Assembly: GCF_009741375.1 (NCBI RefSeq)
Contig: NZ_WOWP01000034.1
Coordinates: 124,001-188,000, forward strand
Length of the DNA stretch: 64,000 bases
Direction: 5' to 3'
Origin: Flavobacterium rakeshii
GTDB taxonomy: Bacteria > Bacteroidota > Bacteroidia > Flavobacteriales > Flavobacteriaceae
Of the stretch, positions 3,139 to 9,530 are shown in pieces. Position 1 is the stretch's first letter. Every line of letters starts with the position of its first letter. The translations under genes were made by a program, and so were the position numbers. A model generated the notes under the pieces. That model was not told where the DNA came from and ran no database searches. It worked only from the letters and a program-made list of their open reading frames with translations.

Positions 3139-3168
3139 TCTTGTAACGTTATATAAACGGGGATTATT

Positions 3169-3945
3169 TTATACTAATTTATTGTTTAATTTTCTCAATT
3201 TAATAGCCGTAAGCACTTTTTTTGTGTACAACGGGAAATCGGCATTTTGTATCCACCCGAAATAACCCGGTTCTTTTTCCAGTATCTCGTCTACTTTTGC
3301 CCCCTTGTGCTTACCAAAGGTAAATATTTCGTTTCCGTCGTCATCCAGCGCTATAAAACCGGCAAAATCGACCGCTTTTTTGCGTGTGGTAAATTCCGAA
3401 AGCAATTTCATATCATTCTCTAAATCGTCATACCTGTCCAGTTGTGATTTAAGTATCTCGTACGTAGCATTCACATCGGCTTCGGCACTATGGGCATTTT
3501 CAAGTATCTGTCCGCAATAAAATTTAAATGCCGCGCTAAGAGTACGTTCCTCTTTTTTATGAAAAATGGTTTGTACATCTACCGTTACCCTGTTTTTCAT
3601 ATCAAAGTCTACATCGGCTCTAAGCAATTCTTCTGCCAGTAACGGAATATCAAATCGGTCTGAATTGTATCCTGCCAAATCAGAATCCTTAATCATATTA
3701 TATACCTGATGCGATAAATCTTTAAACGTAGGCTCATTTGCCACCTTTGCATCATCAATACCATGAAAAGCGGTAGACTGTGGCGGAATGGGTCTTTCCG
3801 GGTTTACCAGCCAGGTTTTACTTTCTTTGTTCCCGTTTGGGAATACCTTTAATATTGATATTTCAACTATTCTGTCTTTGGTTATATCTGTCCCTGTTGT
3901 TTCCAGATCAAAAAAACAGATAGGCCTGTTCAGTTTTAGTTCCAT
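3169..3945 (-). CDS. DEDDh 3'-5' exonuclease (DnaQ-like) with ExoX-type C-terminus
   Basis: The 258-residue protein begins with an epsilon/DnaQ exonuclease fold: FFDLETTGTDI (ExoI), YNSDRFDIPLL (ExoII) and AHSAEADVNAT (ExoIII with the DEDDh histidine). The tail (about 200-250) with FTFGKHKGAKVDEIL and YFGWIQNADF resembles the ExoX C-terminal module. Such proteins remove 3' nucleotides from DNA or RNA in repair or turnover. It is not the replicative epsilon gene by context; its neighbours are metabolic. Confidence 0.88.
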   Translation of the reverse strand: MELKLNRPICFFDLETTGTDITKDRIVEISILKVFPNGNKESKTWLVNPERPIPPQSTAFHGIDDAKVANEPTFKDLSHQVYNMIKDSDLAGYNSDRFDIPLLAEELLRADVDFDMKNRVTVDVQTIFHKKEERTLSAAFKFYCGQILENAHSAEADVNATYEILKSQLDRYDDLENDMKLLSEFTTRKKAVDFAGFIALDDDGNEIFTFGKHKGAKVDEILEKEPGYFGWIQNADFPLYTKKVLTAIKLRKLNNKLV

Positions 3946-4729: not shown

Positions 4730-6154
4730 TTAATCTTCCCGACTTCCGTCGTCGGCCATTCGTACCATTTTCGGGGTAAACTTAGCCACAACATCCACCA
4801 GGTCTTTTTGAGAGGCCATCACTGTATTGATGTCTTTATAAGCCATAGGCGCTTCATCTTTTCCGGCCCCAATAAGGGTCACACCATGATCTTTAAGCAC
4901 CTGCCTCATATCATCTCTTGTAACATTCTTAATAGCCTGTGTTCGGCTCATTAACCTTCCGGCACCGTGTGAGGCCGAATTAATCGCGTTTTCCTCACCT
5001 TTACCTCTAACAAGGAATCCGGGCGCGGTCATACTCCCCGGTATAATACCCATAACACCTTTCCCCGCCGGAGTTGCTCCTTTACGGTGTACAATTACCT
5101 CTTCACCGTTTAAAATTTCCTTCCAGGCAAAATTATGACGGTTCTCTACCTTAGCCAGTACTTTACCTCCCACAGCCCTCGTCATTTTATCGTGTATAAC
5201 CTGATGACAGGCCGACGCATAATCTCCGGCAAGGTTCATGGCTATCCAATATTCCATACCTTCCTGCGAGTTCATATCAAGGTAAGCAAGGTTCTCTGCC
5301 TCTCTTGGCAGTTTACAAATACTTTTTGCCAACTTGGTATAATATCCTGCAACAATACCTCCCAATCCTCGCGAACCCGAATGGGTTAACAGGGCGAGGT
5401 ATCTACCCTTATCAATATTAAGCACCTCATCCCTTTGTTCAAATTCTATAATACCGAACTCCACAAAGTGGTTACCTCCACCCGATGTACCTAGTTGCGA
5501 CCAGGCTTTATCCTTTAAGTTTTTTAATAACGGATTTATATTGAACTCATCTCGGTCAAGCACATCGTGGTTTGCTTTTTCCTTTCCCTTAAATCCCTGT
5601 CCGGCACCAAATTTAGACTGGGCAATTAACTCCCTTTTAAATTTTGCCTGATTTTCCATAAAGAAACTTTCAGGGATATCATATATGGACAAAGCCATTC
5701 TACACCCAATATCTACACCTACTCCATAAGGGATAATGGCATTTTTTGCAGCCAGCACACCACCAATCGGCAGTCCGTAACCCTGATGAGCATCGGGCAT
5801 TAATGAACCTGCTACTGTTACCGGAAGCTTCATAGCCACCTTCATCTGGTCTTTTGCTCCTTCTTCAATATTCTGCTCTCCGTATATGGTATATCCGTTA
5901 GCGTTTTCAACCAGCGGAATCACTTCATCTTTCGGCTTGTTAGCTTCATCAATTATAGCCTGAGCCAAGTTCCCTAACGCTTCATCTTCAAGAAAACTTT
6001 CGGGAGCATCATTCAGGTTTTTCAGTAAAACCAATACTTCTTCTTTATCCTGCGAAGCGTATTTTCTGTTCACAAGATCAAGTGTCATCCCTAAAACTGC
6101 ATTTTCTTTAAAACCGATGTTTAACAAATCGGTTCCCGTAATTAATCGTTCCAT
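4730..6154 (-). CDS. rtcB: RNA-splicing ligase RtcB
   Basis: The 474-residue protein carries the RtcB active-site blocks in order: DAHQGYGLPIGGV, GVGVDIGCRM with the Mn-binding Cys151, GTSGGGNHFVE (222-232), THSGSRGLG (258-265), NRHNFAWKE, HRKGATPAGKG, and NSASHGAGRL with His396, the residue that becomes guanylylated. RtcB uses GTP and Mn2+ to join 2',3'-cyclic-phosphate ends to 5'-OH ends. About 70 extra N-terminal residues distinguish it from E. coli RtcB (408 residues). No rtcA or prfH lies beside it. It follows rsr on the same strand across a 560-base non-coding stretch and ends in a strong terminator. Confidence 0.98.
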   Translation of the reverse strand: MERLITGTDLLNIGFKENAVLGMTLDLVNRKYASQDKEEVLVLLKNLNDAPESFLEDEALGNLAQAIIDEANKPKDEVIPLVENANGYTIYGEQNIEEGAKDQMKVAMKLPVTVAGSLMPDAHQGYGLPIGGVLAAKNAIIPYGVGVDIGCRMALSIYDIPESFFMENQAKFKRELIAQSKFGAGQGFKGKEKANHDVLDRDEFNINPLLKNLKDKAWSQLGTSGGGNHFVEFGIIEFEQRDEVLNIDKGRYLALLTHSGSRGLGGIVAGYYTKLAKSICKLPREAENLAYLDMNSQEGMEYWIAMNLAGDYASACHQVIHDKMTRAVGGKVLAKVENRHNFAWKEILNGEEVIVHRKGATPAGKGVMGIIPGSMTAPGFLVRGKGEENAINSASHGAGRLMSRTQAIKNVTRDDMRQVLKDHGVTLIGAGKDEAPMAYKDINTVMASQKDLVDVVAKFTPKMVRMADDGSRED

Positions 6155-6209: not shown

Positions 6210-6281
6210 AAAAGAGGCAATAAGCGTAAAGTGACTGAATTTTTGGAGAAACAAAGTAACACTTAACAACGGCACTCTTTT
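6210..6281 (-). ncRNA. Y-like RNA unit D (short, degenerate), next to rtcB
   Basis: On the minus strand the ends AAAAGAG and CUCUUUU can pair over 7 bases, enclosing a degenerate copy of the locus repeat (6251-6275: GUGCCGUUGUUAAGUGUUAC, then UUUGU where the others have UUCGUC). No T arm or D arm is recognisable, so it is a short or decayed member. It ends 56 bases upstream of the rtcB start and may lie in the rtcB leader. Expression is inferred. Confidence 0.4.
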
Positions 6282-6370
6282 ATTACCGGGGCTAAATCGT
6301 GAAGTGATTGGCAGGGTTTGACCGCGCCTTAATCAGTTGGACGAAGTAACACTTCACTACGGCACCCGAC
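6282..6370 (-). ncRNA. Y-like, tRNA-like RNA unit C
   Basis: Minus-strand order: a hairpin closed by GUCGG/CCAAC containing the repeat (6340-6366); a T-arm-like hairpin at 6311-6327 (loop GUCAAAC, one C-C mismatch in the stem); an AAUC/GAUU helix capped by seven bases; then UA and a D-loop-like AGCCCCGGUA (6284-6293) with the invariant GG. The order repeats that of unit A, but the D stem is poor. CACUUCAC after the T arm could alternatively pair with GUGAAGUG in the repeat, so two folds compete. Confidence 0.45.
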
Positions 6371-6379
6371 AGATTTTAA

Positions 6380-6524
6380 AAGAACAAAGAAGCAAAAAAC
6401 GGCAAGAGAACGAGGCATGTCCTGCCGGAGTCGAACCGGATAACCTTGCCATATTAAAATGACTACGCTATTCCTCCCCAAAGTTGAGACGAAGTATCCC
6501 TTACCTACGGCATCCTTTTTTCTT
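6380..6524 (-). ncRNA. Y-like, T-arm-containing RNA unit B
   Basis: On the minus strand AAGAA-A-AAAGG (5' end) can pair with CUUCUUUGUUCUU (3' end) with one mismatch. Inside are a repeat hairpin (6488-6515) and a clear T arm (6425-6439, CCGG-UUCGACU-CCGG). The T arm is followed one base later by a capped helix AGGAC-AUGCCUC-GUUCU, and all of this is bracketed by GGCAAG/CUUGCC. No D arm is seen. It looks like a variant of unit A. Size and ends are guesses from base pairing. Confidence 0.5.
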
Positions 6525-6526
6525 AA

Positions 6527-6652
6527 AACAGGGTTATAAACGAAAAGAGACTATTTTTCTTGCTCTACCGGACTGAGCTACATTTTACAATGACAGGATT
6601 CGAACCTGTGACACAGAACTGGACGAAGTAACTCTTATCAACGACACCTGTT
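6527..6652 (-). ncRNA. Permuted tRNA-mimic / Y-like RNA unit A, next to rsr
   Basis: The ends AACAGG and CCUGUU pair. Reading the minus strand: the repeat hairpin (6622-6648), UUCU, a five-base GUGUC, a perfect T arm at 6593-6609 (ACAGG-UUCGAAU-CCUGU), the helix CAUU-GUAA-AAUG (6581-6592) with a GNRA tetraloop, the linker UA, a perfect D arm at 6562-6578 (GCUC-AGUCCGGUA-GAGC), A, then AGAA, which can pair with UUCU as a short anticodon stem. Residues equivalent to U8, A14, G15, G18, G19, A26, C48, U54, U55, C56 and A58 are all present. It therefore has a tRNA elbow with the ends moved to the anticodon stem. Resemblance to the YrlA class of bacterial Y RNAs, which carry a tRNA-like module, is inferred. 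Confidence 0.75.
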
Positions 6653-6683: not shown

Positions 6684-6712
6684 GCTCCCGCAGCATCCCC
6701 GGCTGCGGGAGC
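6684..6712 (-). terminator. GC-rich 11-bp hairpin just after rsr
   Basis: GCTCCCGCAGC and GCTGCGGGAGC pair perfectly around a 7-base loop, three bases past the rsr stop. On the minus strand it is followed by UUAAUAAAAG rather than a U run, so it is a poor intrinsic terminator. It may be a processing, stabilising or attenuating stem that separates rsr mRNA from the RNA units. Confidence 0.6.
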
Positions 6713-6715
6713 AGT

Positions 6716-8230
6716 CTACAATTTGATTTGGCTTATCTTTTCCATAGCAATCGCTGTATCATCTACAGCATTAAGAACATCAAAGATCTTGTCAGACCAG
6801 CCTGCAATCAAATACACATCATTTCTTTTTATATCCAGAGGCATGCTACCATGTCCTGCAAGGTCAAATATATACAGCTTAGCTTTTGGCGCCAGTCGCT
6901 TGTACATTTTCCATGAATTTTCAAACGAATTGAATCCATGATTACTATACATCTGTACATCGGTAAACAGCATCACCTTATCTACAAGCTGTTTTCTTTT
7001 TATAAGGTCGTCTATAACAAGATAACCGTATGTAGAATAACCTACTTCACCCTCTCTCCTGTAATACTCCTGTACATTTGCCAGTACATTTCTACGTGGC
7101 ATGTTTATTATTTTCCACCTGTCGCCAAACATACCGCTAACCACGTTTTTACATTGCGACTGCAGCAACATACCCAGCATAAGCCCCACATCATAAAGCA
7201 TTACACTACTTCTTGCCGAAACAGGTTGCCGCATGGAACCCGAAACATCGCAGGCAATAACTACCGAAGTATCTGCATCAAAACCCTTTATATTACGCGC
7301 GCTGTGCATCACAGCATCTTCAAGAGCTTCCAGTACTACAGAGGTATATTTAGAGTCATGCTTTTTAACCTCCCTGTATGCTGCAAGAAACCTGAAAGGC
7401 AATTGTTTTGAATTTGCCACAGCCTGCTCGTTTGCTATATAATCGCAAACCATATATAAATGATTTGCCGAAACATTAGCATCAAGTATATTCCTTAGGT
7501 TACGCATAATTGCCATATAACCTACTTTTTTACTCTCTATAAGCTCTTCCCATTTTTGGGCTATCGCTAACTGCTTAACATGTTCGTTTTCAAATTTGGC
7601 TTTACCCAGTTCAGATAGCTCTGTTTCCCATGTATAAGGAGTAGCCAGAGTATCGGCAGCAATTTTATTGAATACTGCCTGTTGGCTCTCATCTTTTGCT
7701 TTTGGGTGTACCAGAAACAGGGCATCTTTTAGTTTTACTTCTGTTTTCCTGTTGTACTTCGCAAACTGATACTCATCAAACCTGTTAAATGATGTTGCAA
7801 GTCCTTTTTGCACCTGCTTAGAAAGCCTGTTCAGCTTTTTTACACCATTACGCTGGTTTGCTATTTGATAGTAAGCCAAAAGCTCGGCTATCTCATCTGC
7901 ACGCTGTACTACACCGTTTACAGCCTGACTCACTATTGATGTGCCCGATGCCTGTTTTGCAAGCTCTACCGAAAGCACCAGTGGTATACTCCTTAAGTAC
8001 ATTTGTGTTCTCACATAAACGGCTAACTTTGTAACAAACTCAGCATCACATTGAGTTATCAGGCTTTTAATCCTTTTAAGTCTGTCATCCCCCGATTCGT
8101 AAAATGTATTACTCAGCCCGGTTGTAACCACCGCTGTATACAGTTCTATTTCGGGAGTAACCTTATAAGCTTTTACCCCTTGGTAATTCACAGTCGTGTT
8201 TTTGGTTTTGGCTAAAAAATTGAATTTCAT
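6716..8230 (-). CDS. rsr: Ro60 orthologue Rsr (TROVE and vWA domain RNA-binding protein)
   Basis: The 504-residue protein has an N-terminal alpha-helical TROVE region (about 10-310) with the typical opening YKVTPEIELYTAVVTTGLSNTFYESGDDRL. A C-terminal vWA domain (about 320-504) carries the MIDAS motif DVSGS at 328-332 and LFTD at 421-424. Ro proteins form a ring that binds misfolded RNA ends in the hole and Y RNAs on the outer face. In Deinococcus and Salmonella, Rsr works with Y RNAs and PNPase; in Salmonella it is encoded with RtcB. Here the same genomic link is seen, with candidate Y-like RNAs directly downstream. Confidence 0.95.
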   Translation of the reverse strand: MKFNFLAKTKNTTVNYQGVKAYKVTPEIELYTAVVTTGLSNTFYESGDDRLKRIKSLITQCDAEFVTKLAVYVRTQMYLRSIPLVLSVELAKQASGTSIVSQAVNGVVQRADEIAELLAYYQIANQRNGVKKLNRLSKQVQKGLATSFNRFDEYQFAKYNRKTEVKLKDALFLVHPKAKDESQQAVFNKIAADTLATPYTWETELSELGKAKFENEHVKQLAIAQKWEELIESKKVGYMAIMRNLRNILDANVSANHLYMVCDYIANEQAVANSKQLPFRFLAAYREVKKHDSKYTSVVLEALEDAVMHSARNIKGFDADTSVVIACDVSGSMRQPVSARSSVMLYDVGLMLGMLLQSQCKNVVSGMFGDRWKIINMPRRNVLANVQEYYRREGEVGYSTYGYLVIDDLIKRKQLVDKVMLFTDVQMYSNHGFNSFENSWKMYKRLAPKAKLYIFDLAGHGSMPLDIKRNDVYLIAGWSDKIFDVLNAVDDTAIAMEKISQIKL

Positions 8231-8463: not shown

Positions 8464-8471
8464 TACATTTG
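8464..8471 (+). promoter_or_regulatory. -7 element of the WYL regulator gene
   Basis: TACATTTG is an exact TAnnTTTG match, 39 bases before the ATG at 8511. It argues against the in-frame TTG at 8469, which lies inside the promoter element. Confidence 0.65.
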
Positions 8472-8510
8472 AAGTATCAATTTTTACCCAAAACCGACAA
8501 AACCATCAAT

Positions 8511-9530
8511 ATGGCTACAAATAAGCTTGCCCTTTTGCGATACAAAACCATTGATCAATGTCTTAAAAACAGGTTTAGAAAATGGACACTGGAAGATCTT
8601 ATTGAAAAAGTATCAGATGCTTTGTACGAATATGAAGGCATCACCACGGGGGTAAGCAAACGTACTATTCAGTCAGACATACAAACCATGCGTAGTGACA
8701 AGCTGGGTTATAATGCCCCCATAATAGTTACCGATAAACGATTTTACACGTATGAGGATGCTGATTACAGCATTACCAATTCCCCTATCAATACTGCCGA
8801 TATGGACAAGATGAAGGAGATTGTAAGTGTACTCAAACAGCTTAACGGGTTTAACTATTTTGACGAGATGAGTGACCTGATTGCAAAACTGGAGAACAAC
8901 GTAAACAAATCGGCCGACAGTAATAAGAACTTCATACAGTTTGAAGATAATAAGGAGTTAAAAGGAAGGGAACACATAACTCCTTTGTATCAGGCTATAT
9001 TTAATAAAACGCCATTGTTTTTAGAATACAAATCGTTCAAGGCATTAAAGCCAAGTAAGGAAATATATTATCCGTACCTTTTAAAGGAATACAGAAACCG
9101 TTGGTTTTTGGTTTGCCGACCTAAATCTAACCCAAACCTGCTAACACTGGCGCTCGACAGGATTATTGAGTTTCACCCGTTACCTAAAGAACTGTATGTA
9201 GAATATGAAGGGGTTAACTTTGACCGTTATTTTGACGATTTACTTGGTGTAACCAAATCACACAGGGACAGACCCAACAAAATAATACTACACGTAAACA
9301 AGTACAACGCACCTTATGTTATTACCAAGCCCATACATGCTTCCCAAAAACTTTTAAGTGAAAATGAAACAGGTATAACAATACGTATAGATGTAGTACA
9401 TAATTTTGAATTGGAAAGAGAAATATTAGGATTTGGAGAAACTATAGAAGTACTATCTCCAAAAAAACTCAGGGATATAATTGCACGCCGTTTACATAAG
9501 GCTTCAAATAAATACAGGGACGACCAGTAA
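8511..9530 (+). CDS. WYL-domain transcriptional regulator of the rsr-rtcB locus
   Basis: About 339 residues from the ATG at 8511; the longer frame from TTG at 8469 would overlap the promoter. The N-terminal helix-turn-helix region (about 1-75) contains TLEDLIEKVSDALYEYEG and SKRTIQSDIQTMR. The centre and C-terminus (about 115-330) form a WYL domain: LEYKSF, then YYPYLLKEYRNRWFLVCRPK with a YLLKEYRNRWFL core, then a WCX-like tail. WYL proteins often sense nucleic-acid ligands or nucleotides and control DNA-damage, phage-defence or RNA-repair genes. It is divergent from rsr across 280 bases holding two matching operators, so it is the probable local regulator. Confidence 0.88.
   Translation: MATNKLALLRYKTIDQCLKNRFRKWTLEDLIEKVSDALYEYEGITTGVSKRTIQSDIQTMRSDKLGYNAPIIVTDKRFYTYEDADYSITNSPINTADMDKMKEIVSVLKQLNGFNYFDEMSDLIAKLENNVNKSADSNKNFIQFEDNKELKGREHITPLYQAIFNKTPLFLEYKSFKALKPSKEIYYPYLLKEYRNRWFLVCRPKSNPNLLTLALDRIIEFHPLPKELYVEYEGVNFDRYFDDLLGVTKSHRDRPNKIILHVNKYNAPYVITKPIHASQKLLSENETGITIRIDVVHNFELEREILGFGETIEVLSPKKLRDIIARRLHKASNKYRDDQ

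What the first reader, a model, noticed from the sequence alone, without database searches (positions are those of the whole stretch)
6527..6652. Circularly permuted tRNA mimic between rsr and rtcB
Seen directly: on the minus strand a perfect T arm (6593-6609) is joined by a four-pair helix with a GUAA tetraloop (6581-6592) and a U-A linker to a perfect D arm (6562-6578). The order is T then D, the reverse of a tRNA, and the two ends leave where the anticodon stem would be (AGAA pairs with UUCU, leaving a five-base variable loop ending in C). All the residues for the tRNA elbow contacts are present: U8-A14, G15-C48, G18-U55, G19-C56, U54-A58. The GNRA cap means there is no free 3' CCA end, so it could not be charged. 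The likely use is mimicry of a tRNA by a Ro-bound Y RNA, as proposed for YrlA RNAs. The permutation, completeness and position make it a strong candidate for an undescribed RNA.
Basis: partly seen in the sequence, partly recalled or inferred. Interest (0 to 1): 0.95.

Follow-up and report, generated by a model that had tools for sequence, protein, structure and literature searches.

The report
YrlA-type Y RNA beside Rsr
The stretch encodes a real, strongly conserved small RNA that imitates a tRNA in rearranged order and very probably partners the Ro60-like protein Rsr; this RNA type (YrlA) is already known, but here it sits in a cluster of four related RNAs, one of which carries a conserved module not found in the Rfam catalogue.

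Summary
In detail: on the minus strand at 6527-6652 a T arm, a GNRA-capped 4-bp helix and a D arm lie in permuted order inside a long basal stem. It is a YrlA-type bacterial Y RNA, not an undescribed RNA. Rfam YrlA hits it (43 bits, E=3.3e-8, below the curated cut-off of 69) in the same order, and a covariance model built only from Bacteroidota relatives recovers Rsr-linked YrlA RNAs of Rhizobium, Deinococcus and phages. The permutation of YrlA relative to tRNA is already published. The structure is strongly supported: across 26 relatives 29 of 36 pairs show double changes, and in 151 distinct modules the tertiary 15-48 pair switches between G-C (100) and A-U (47), with 4 exceptions. No transcript evidence was available. 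Unit 2 carries a conserved module (T arm plus a likely pseudoknot) with no Rfam match; its model matched only Rsr-bearing genomes (9 of 15 with Rsr, 0 of 183 without). Verdict: new member of a known kind; the cluster and the second module are the more interesting leftovers.

The parts
6527..6652 (-). Unit 1: YrlA-type Y RNA (whole unit)
   Evidence: R1 112 bits, E 1.3e-25 (the window unit is in the model's training set); RF02553 43 bits; covariation
6647..6652 (-). Outer basal stem, 5' strand AACAGG (continues as GU at 6645-6644 after a bulged U)
   Evidence: Helix 1, 98.1% of cells paired, double changes in 6 of 8 pairs
6527..6532 (-). Outer basal stem, 3' strand CCUGUU (pairs 6652-6647; AC at 6534-6533 pairs GU)
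6632..6639 (-). Inner Y stem, 5' strand
   Evidence: Helix 2, all 8 pairs with double changes
6542..6549 (-). Inner Y stem, 3' strand
6624..6631 (-). Conserved UUACUUCG of the Y core, present with small changes in all four units
   Evidence: direct repeat family D2; nearly invariant in A1
6615..6618 (-). UUCU, anticodon-stem-like strand, pairs AGAA 6557-6560
   Evidence: Helix 3, 81.1% paired, all 4 pairs covary
6557..6560 (-). AGAA, partner of UUCU 6615-6618
6610..6614 (-). Variable loop GUGUC, ending in C48
   Evidence: 15-48 pair covaries G-C/A-U in relatives
6593..6609 (-). T arm
   Evidence: Helix 4, 100% paired; U54, U55, C56, A58 constant, but these letters were fixed by the search pattern
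6581..6592 (-). Acceptor-like helix CAUU/AAUG capped by GUAA
   Evidence: Helix 5, all 7 alignment pairs covary
6562..6578 (-). D arm
   Evidence: Helix 6, 98.1% paired, nearly invariant in this set chosen for the GCUC type; other D-arm types in the arrays
6385..6519 (-). Unit 2: Y core with the class-2 module
   Evidence: R2 129.9 bits (a training member); covariation; no Rfam match
6412..6479 (-). Class-2 module GGGGAGGAAUAGCG...CCGGUUCGACUCCGG...GAC..GCCUC: T arm at 6439-6425, P1 6479-6476 with 6415-6412, possible pseudoknot GUC 6490-6488 with GAC 6421-6419
6284..6371 (-). Unit 3: Y core with a short hairpin module
   Evidence: R2 37.7 bits, R1 39.2 bits; fold z=-1.72
6210..6281 (-). Unit 4: simple Y hairpin without a visible T arm
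   Evidence: R1 48.5 bits, R2 45.7 bits
6716..8230 (-). rsr (Ro60 orthologue)
   Evidence: Pfam TROVE 3.3e-27, Ro60 vWA 4.6e-5
4730..6154 (-). rtcB RNA ligase
   Evidence: Pfam RtcB 2.9e-80
8469..9530 (+). Divergent WYL-WCX regulator, candidate controller of the operon
   Evidence: Pfam WCX 1.8e-11, WYL 3e-8; homologue upstream of and divergent from rsr in 46 of 94 loci

Best explanation
6527-6652 (minus) encodes a YrlA-type bacterial Y RNA, the first of four tandem Y RNAs between rsr and rtcB. Its basal stem (Y core) is the part that Rsr would hold. Its other end is a circularly permuted tRNA elbow: D and T arms dock as in tRNA, the acceptor arm is reduced to a short capped helix, and the anticodon side is where the module joins the basal stem. 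By analogy with the published Rsr-Y RNA-PNPase complex, it most likely works as a tether: Rsr on the stem, and a tRNA-binding effector (PNPase or a tRNA-handling enzyme) on the module. Shown here: sequence, order, covariation, elbow covariation, Rsr linkage, shared family with accepted YrlA RNAs. Inferred: transcription as a discrete RNA, Rsr binding, effector identity. The identity as YrlA is near certain; the tether mechanism alone I would put at about 0.6.
For: RF02553 match in identical T-helix-D order. Structure counts 93.7% paired against 70.4% shuffled, covariation score 0.649 against 0.215, 0/500 shuffles. Pair 15-48 is G-C in 100, A-U in 47 and other in 4 of 151 distinct modules. R1, built only from Bacteroidota rsr loci, finds the Rhizobium rtcR-rsr-rtcB operon RNA that Rfam calls YrlA above its cut-off (R1 55.7, Rfam 92.4 bits), the Deinococcus gobiensis RNA beside Rsr (92.8) and Rsr-linked phage RNAs (up to 108.5). 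In 198 Bacteroidota genomes every listed R1 match of 61 bits or more lies in a genome with Rsr. Tether model: published text on YrlA and the Rsr-PNPase complex (PMC8394870; PMC7790460).
Against: Score is below Rfam's curated cut-off (43 against 69). Thermodynamic folding of the single sequence is unremarkable. No RNA-seq or binding data. The PNPase tether was shown for Deinococcus radiodurans, not for Bacteroidota, and several Y RNAs in one array may have different partners. Related sequences count several times in the covariation tallies.
Confidence: 0.88

Rival explanations
1. A decoy rather than a tether: the tRNA-like module occupies tRNA-targeting nucleases or modifying enzymes and so protects tRNAs, in line with the neighbouring RNA-repair ligase RtcB.
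For: Suggested for Salmonella YrlA as a possibility (PMC7790460); rtcB is next in the operon in many loci; arrays hold modules with different D-arm types, including one 17-nt D arm identical to that of the window genome's tRNA-Gln.
Against: The module has no anticodon, so it could only bind enzymes that read the elbow or acceptor side; Salmonella YrlA was not cut by the anticodon nuclease; the conserved Y-core stem is unexplained by a pure decoy.
Confidence: 0.15
2. A cis-acting mRNA element (processing or attenuation site between rsr and rtcB) rather than a trans-acting RNA.
For: It lies inside a co-directional operon; a strong 11-bp hairpin follows the rsr stop codon (6712-6684), with similar hairpins in relatives.
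Against: Four units with individual closed basal stems; rtcB is absent near rsr in many relatives while the RNAs remain; phage RNAs lie upstream of Rsr.
Confidence: 0.06
3. Remnant of two tandem tRNA genes, whose junction happens to read T arm then D arm.
For: Real tandem tRNA junctions do match YrlA-type models, here and probably in many genomes.
Against: No tRNA in the window; closing stems and elbow covary across families; full-length high-scoring matches are confined to Rsr genomes.
Confidence: 0.01

Closest known systems
YrlA, Rfam RF02553 (Salmonella YrlA, structure 6CU1)
   Same: Rsr linkage, basal stem, T arm - helix - D arm order, elbow residues, often beside rtcB
   Different: Below Rfam's cut-off; acceptor-like helix only 4 bp with a GUAA cap; in Bacteroidota found as one of several units in a cluster
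Deinococcus Y RNA (Rsr-Y RNA-PNPase complex, RYPER)
   Same: Y core beside rsr; the RNA beside Rsr on the Deinococcus gobiensis plasmid matches R1 at 92.8 bits
   Different: Effector not tested here; the window carries four units
tRNA and the tRNA-like domain of tmRNA
   Same: T arm, D arm, elbow pairs 8-14, 15-48, 18-55, 19-56, 54-58
   Different: Arms in reversed order, no anticodon arm, no free CCA end
Class-2 module of unit 2 (neighbour in the same array)
   Same: Shares the Y core and has a canonical T loop
   Different: No D arm; extra stem and likely pseudoknot; no Rfam match at E up to 10 in the window

Membership tests
YrlA (RF02553) | Significant match to the family model over T arm, helix and D arm | tested here: met
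   E 3.3e-8, model positions 23-87. It does not reach Rfam's curated cut-off (43 of 69 bits), nor do the Rsr-linked RNA of Deinococcus gobiensis (49.6) or one of two in Rhizobium (63.5)
YrlA (RF02553) | Gene next to a Ro60/Rsr gene | tested here: met
   rsr 6716-8230, TROVE 3.3e-27
YrlA (RF02553) | Basal stem closed by the 5' and 3' ends, shared with other Y RNAs | tested here: met
   Helices 1 and 2 covary; the model cross-hits accepted YrlA and Deinococcus RNAs end to end
YrlA (RF02553) | tRNA-like domain with permuted T and D arms and elbow contacts | tested here: met
   Helices 4-6; 15-48 covariation
YrlA (RF02553) | Binds Rsr; modified by tRNA enzymes (DusA, TruB) | not testable with these tools
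   Reported for the family (PMC8394870)
RYPER tether RNA | Bridges Rsr and PNPase | not testable with these tools
   Reported for Deinococcus radiodurans
tRNA | D arm before T arm, anticodon arm, acceptor stem with free 3' end | tested here: not met
   ARAGORN none; order T then D

The most novel reading that the evidence does not exclude
In Bacteroidota, Rsr is served by a cluster of Y RNAs carrying different adaptor modules: permuted tRNA mimics whose D arms resemble different tRNAs, plus an uncatalogued, probably pseudoknotted T-arm module (class 2), so that one Ro protein could be directed to several effectors.
Probability: 0.35. Interest if true: 0.65.

Novelty: new member of a known kind. 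Interest (0 to 1): 0.42.

Why it matters
It places the YrlA tRNA mimic firmly in Bacteroidota, where Rfam's cut-off misses every example tested, and gives comparative evidence (covariation of the 15-48 tertiary pair) that the rearranged arms really fold into a tRNA elbow. The wider locus suggests that Rsr may use several adaptor RNAs; the effector of Y RNAs outside Deinococcus is an open question that these clusters make testable.

Tried and rejected
Undescribed RNA: rejected by the Rfam match, the cross-hits and the published permutation. Tandem-tRNA remnant: rejected. Single-sequence folding as evidence: uninformative. GNRA cap as a diagnostic: rejected, 21 of 151. Class-2 module in viral contigs: two exact patterns gave none; a short pattern gave 75 contigs, none of which matches R2. 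Class 2 outside Bacteroidota was not found in the few Rsr loci tested (Deinococcus, Rhizobium, Halobaculum; phage matches to R2 are weak and can come from the shared Y core); a scan of genomes of other phyla was not possible. Isotype reading of the D arms: only suggestive, most are the common GCUC/GAGC type (121 of 184). The original YrlA papers are not in the paper library, so I could not check whether multi-RNA clusters or class 2 were already reported.

Full report
Observation.

Chance and confounders. The genome-wide E-value is 4.7e-8. Two further YrlA matches in the genome, 35 and 31 bits, are junctions of tandem tRNA genes, because the T arm of one tRNA followed by the D arm of the next gives the same order. 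Most of the 167 of 198 Bacteroidota genomes with an R1 match look like this: below about 60 bits, and many matching only the module part of the model; only those of the own genome were checked with ARAGORN. High-scoring full-length matches are a different set: all genomes listed with R1 at 61 bits or more also have Rsr.

Comparison. Eighty named Rsr loci from genome contigs and further loci from genomes of the same genus were oriented and searched. Permuted T-D modules were found in 89 of 97 rsr loci (a pattern search that requires paired arms and is loose enough to include a few chance hits), and 151 distinct modules with an upstream Y core in 87 loci. T arms downstream of rsr are almost all on the rsr-sense strand. 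An alignment of 26 diverse units gives 36 pairs in six helices: 93.7% of cells pair against 70.4% in shuffles, 29 pairs have double changes, and the covariation score is 0.649 against 0.215 in shuffles and at most 0.167 when slid. The tertiary 15-48 pair was not selected either: G-C 100, A-U 47, four others among 151. Relatedness inflates such counts, but the switch also occurs within the common GCUC-type D arms. The contacts 8-14 and 54-58 are constant, though the search pattern fixed these letters.

Family membership. Model R1, built only from the Bacteroidota alignment, was run on Rsr loci from elsewhere. It finds end to end the Rhizobium phaseoli RNA between rsr and rtcB that Rfam scores above its YrlA cut-off (R1 55.7 bits, Rfam 92.4), a Deinococcus gobiensis RNA just upstream of Rsr (R1 92.8, Rfam 49.6), and RNAs beside Rsr in Caulobacter phage CcrColossus (six matches, five of 53.9 bits or more), Xanthomonas phage Olaya (three) and phage csAssE-Sib (one full-length); three of these coincide with Rfam YrlA matches. 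The window RNA therefore belongs to the YrlA family. The circular permutation of YrlA against tRNA is already described from structure 6CU1 (PMC11472068). The statement that YrlA is widespread beside Ro60 genes rests on my own knowledge of the original papers, which are not held, and on reviews.

The cluster. The gap in the window holds four copies of the Y core; R2 matches the own genome only at these four places (window coordinates). R1 finds 516 matches at E 0.01 in 83 sources (this includes tRNA junctions and shared Y cores, so it is an upper bound on Y RNAs); a stricter core pattern counts about 3.6 per full locus, probably an underestimate since it finds only two of the four units of the window. 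Unit 2 has a second kind of module, GGGGAGGAAUARYG...CAAGRYUAUCCGGUUCGAYUCCGG...GCCCC, found by pattern in 77 of 97 loci. Its structure covaries (22 of 37 pairs with double changes; score 0.474 against 0.225). A helix between the bases after the Y core and those before GCCCC would cross P1 and make a pseudoknot; it is favoured over shuffled partners (87.7% with at least 3 pairs against 72.3%, 0 of 2000 shuffles as high), while P1 itself hardly varies. In 198 Bacteroidota genomes R2 matches 9, all among the 15 with Rsr. The matches at 58-66 bits in other families are altered, shortened versions of the module. Rfam has no match for it.

Mechanism. The best reading is a tether: Rsr on the Y core and a tRNA-binding effector on the permuted elbow, as for Rsr-Y RNA-PNPase. 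The shape, the linkage and the family are shown; expression, Rsr binding and effector are inferred. A WYL-WCX regulator (8469-9530) lies upstream and divergent here and in 46 of 94 loci with upstream sequence; it could replace RtcR as the controller, which is an inference.

Verdict. The finding is correct in observation and largely in interpretation, except for novelty. It is a new member of a known kind. The cluster and the class-2 module are the parts worth following.

Noticed in passing
window 6385-6519 (-): Unit 2: Y core with a highly conserved T-arm module and likely pseudoknot, no Rfam match; present by pattern in 77 of 97 Bacteroidota rsr loci.
   Followed up: partly
window 8469-9530 (+): WYL-WCX transcriptional regulator divergent from rsr, with homologues in the same place in 46 of 94 loci, not found in the Chryseobacterium loci; possible controller of the operon in place of RtcR.
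   Followed up: partly
window 6684-6712 (-): 11-bp hairpin right after the rsr stop codon without a U tract; similar hairpins follow rsr in several relatives.
   Followed up: no
L199 3148-3312 (Caulobacter phage CcrColossus): A feature annotated as tRNA-Gln (3152-3219) overlaps a strong YrlA-type match (96.9 bits) and is probably a misannotated Y RNA.
   Followed up: no
L053, L073, L092: In three Bacteroidota metagenome bins rsr lies among 10-17 ordinary tRNA genes within 10 kb.
   Followed up: no
L034 5576 onward; L035 5583 onward: A GGGAGGAAU element without an upstream Y core directly after rsr, followed by a T arm; in L034 also a GUAA-capped helix and a D-like arm.
   Followed up: no
L068 1461-1603, L088 818-959: Pairs of low-scoring tRNA-like sequences (31-37 bits) upstream of rsr in Chryseobacterium; ARAGORN calls none in L068.
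   Followed up: no
L002, L003 and many genomes: YrlA-type covariance models match junctions of tandem tRNA genes; a source of false YrlA annotations, and possibly how such permuted modules arose.
   Followed up: partly
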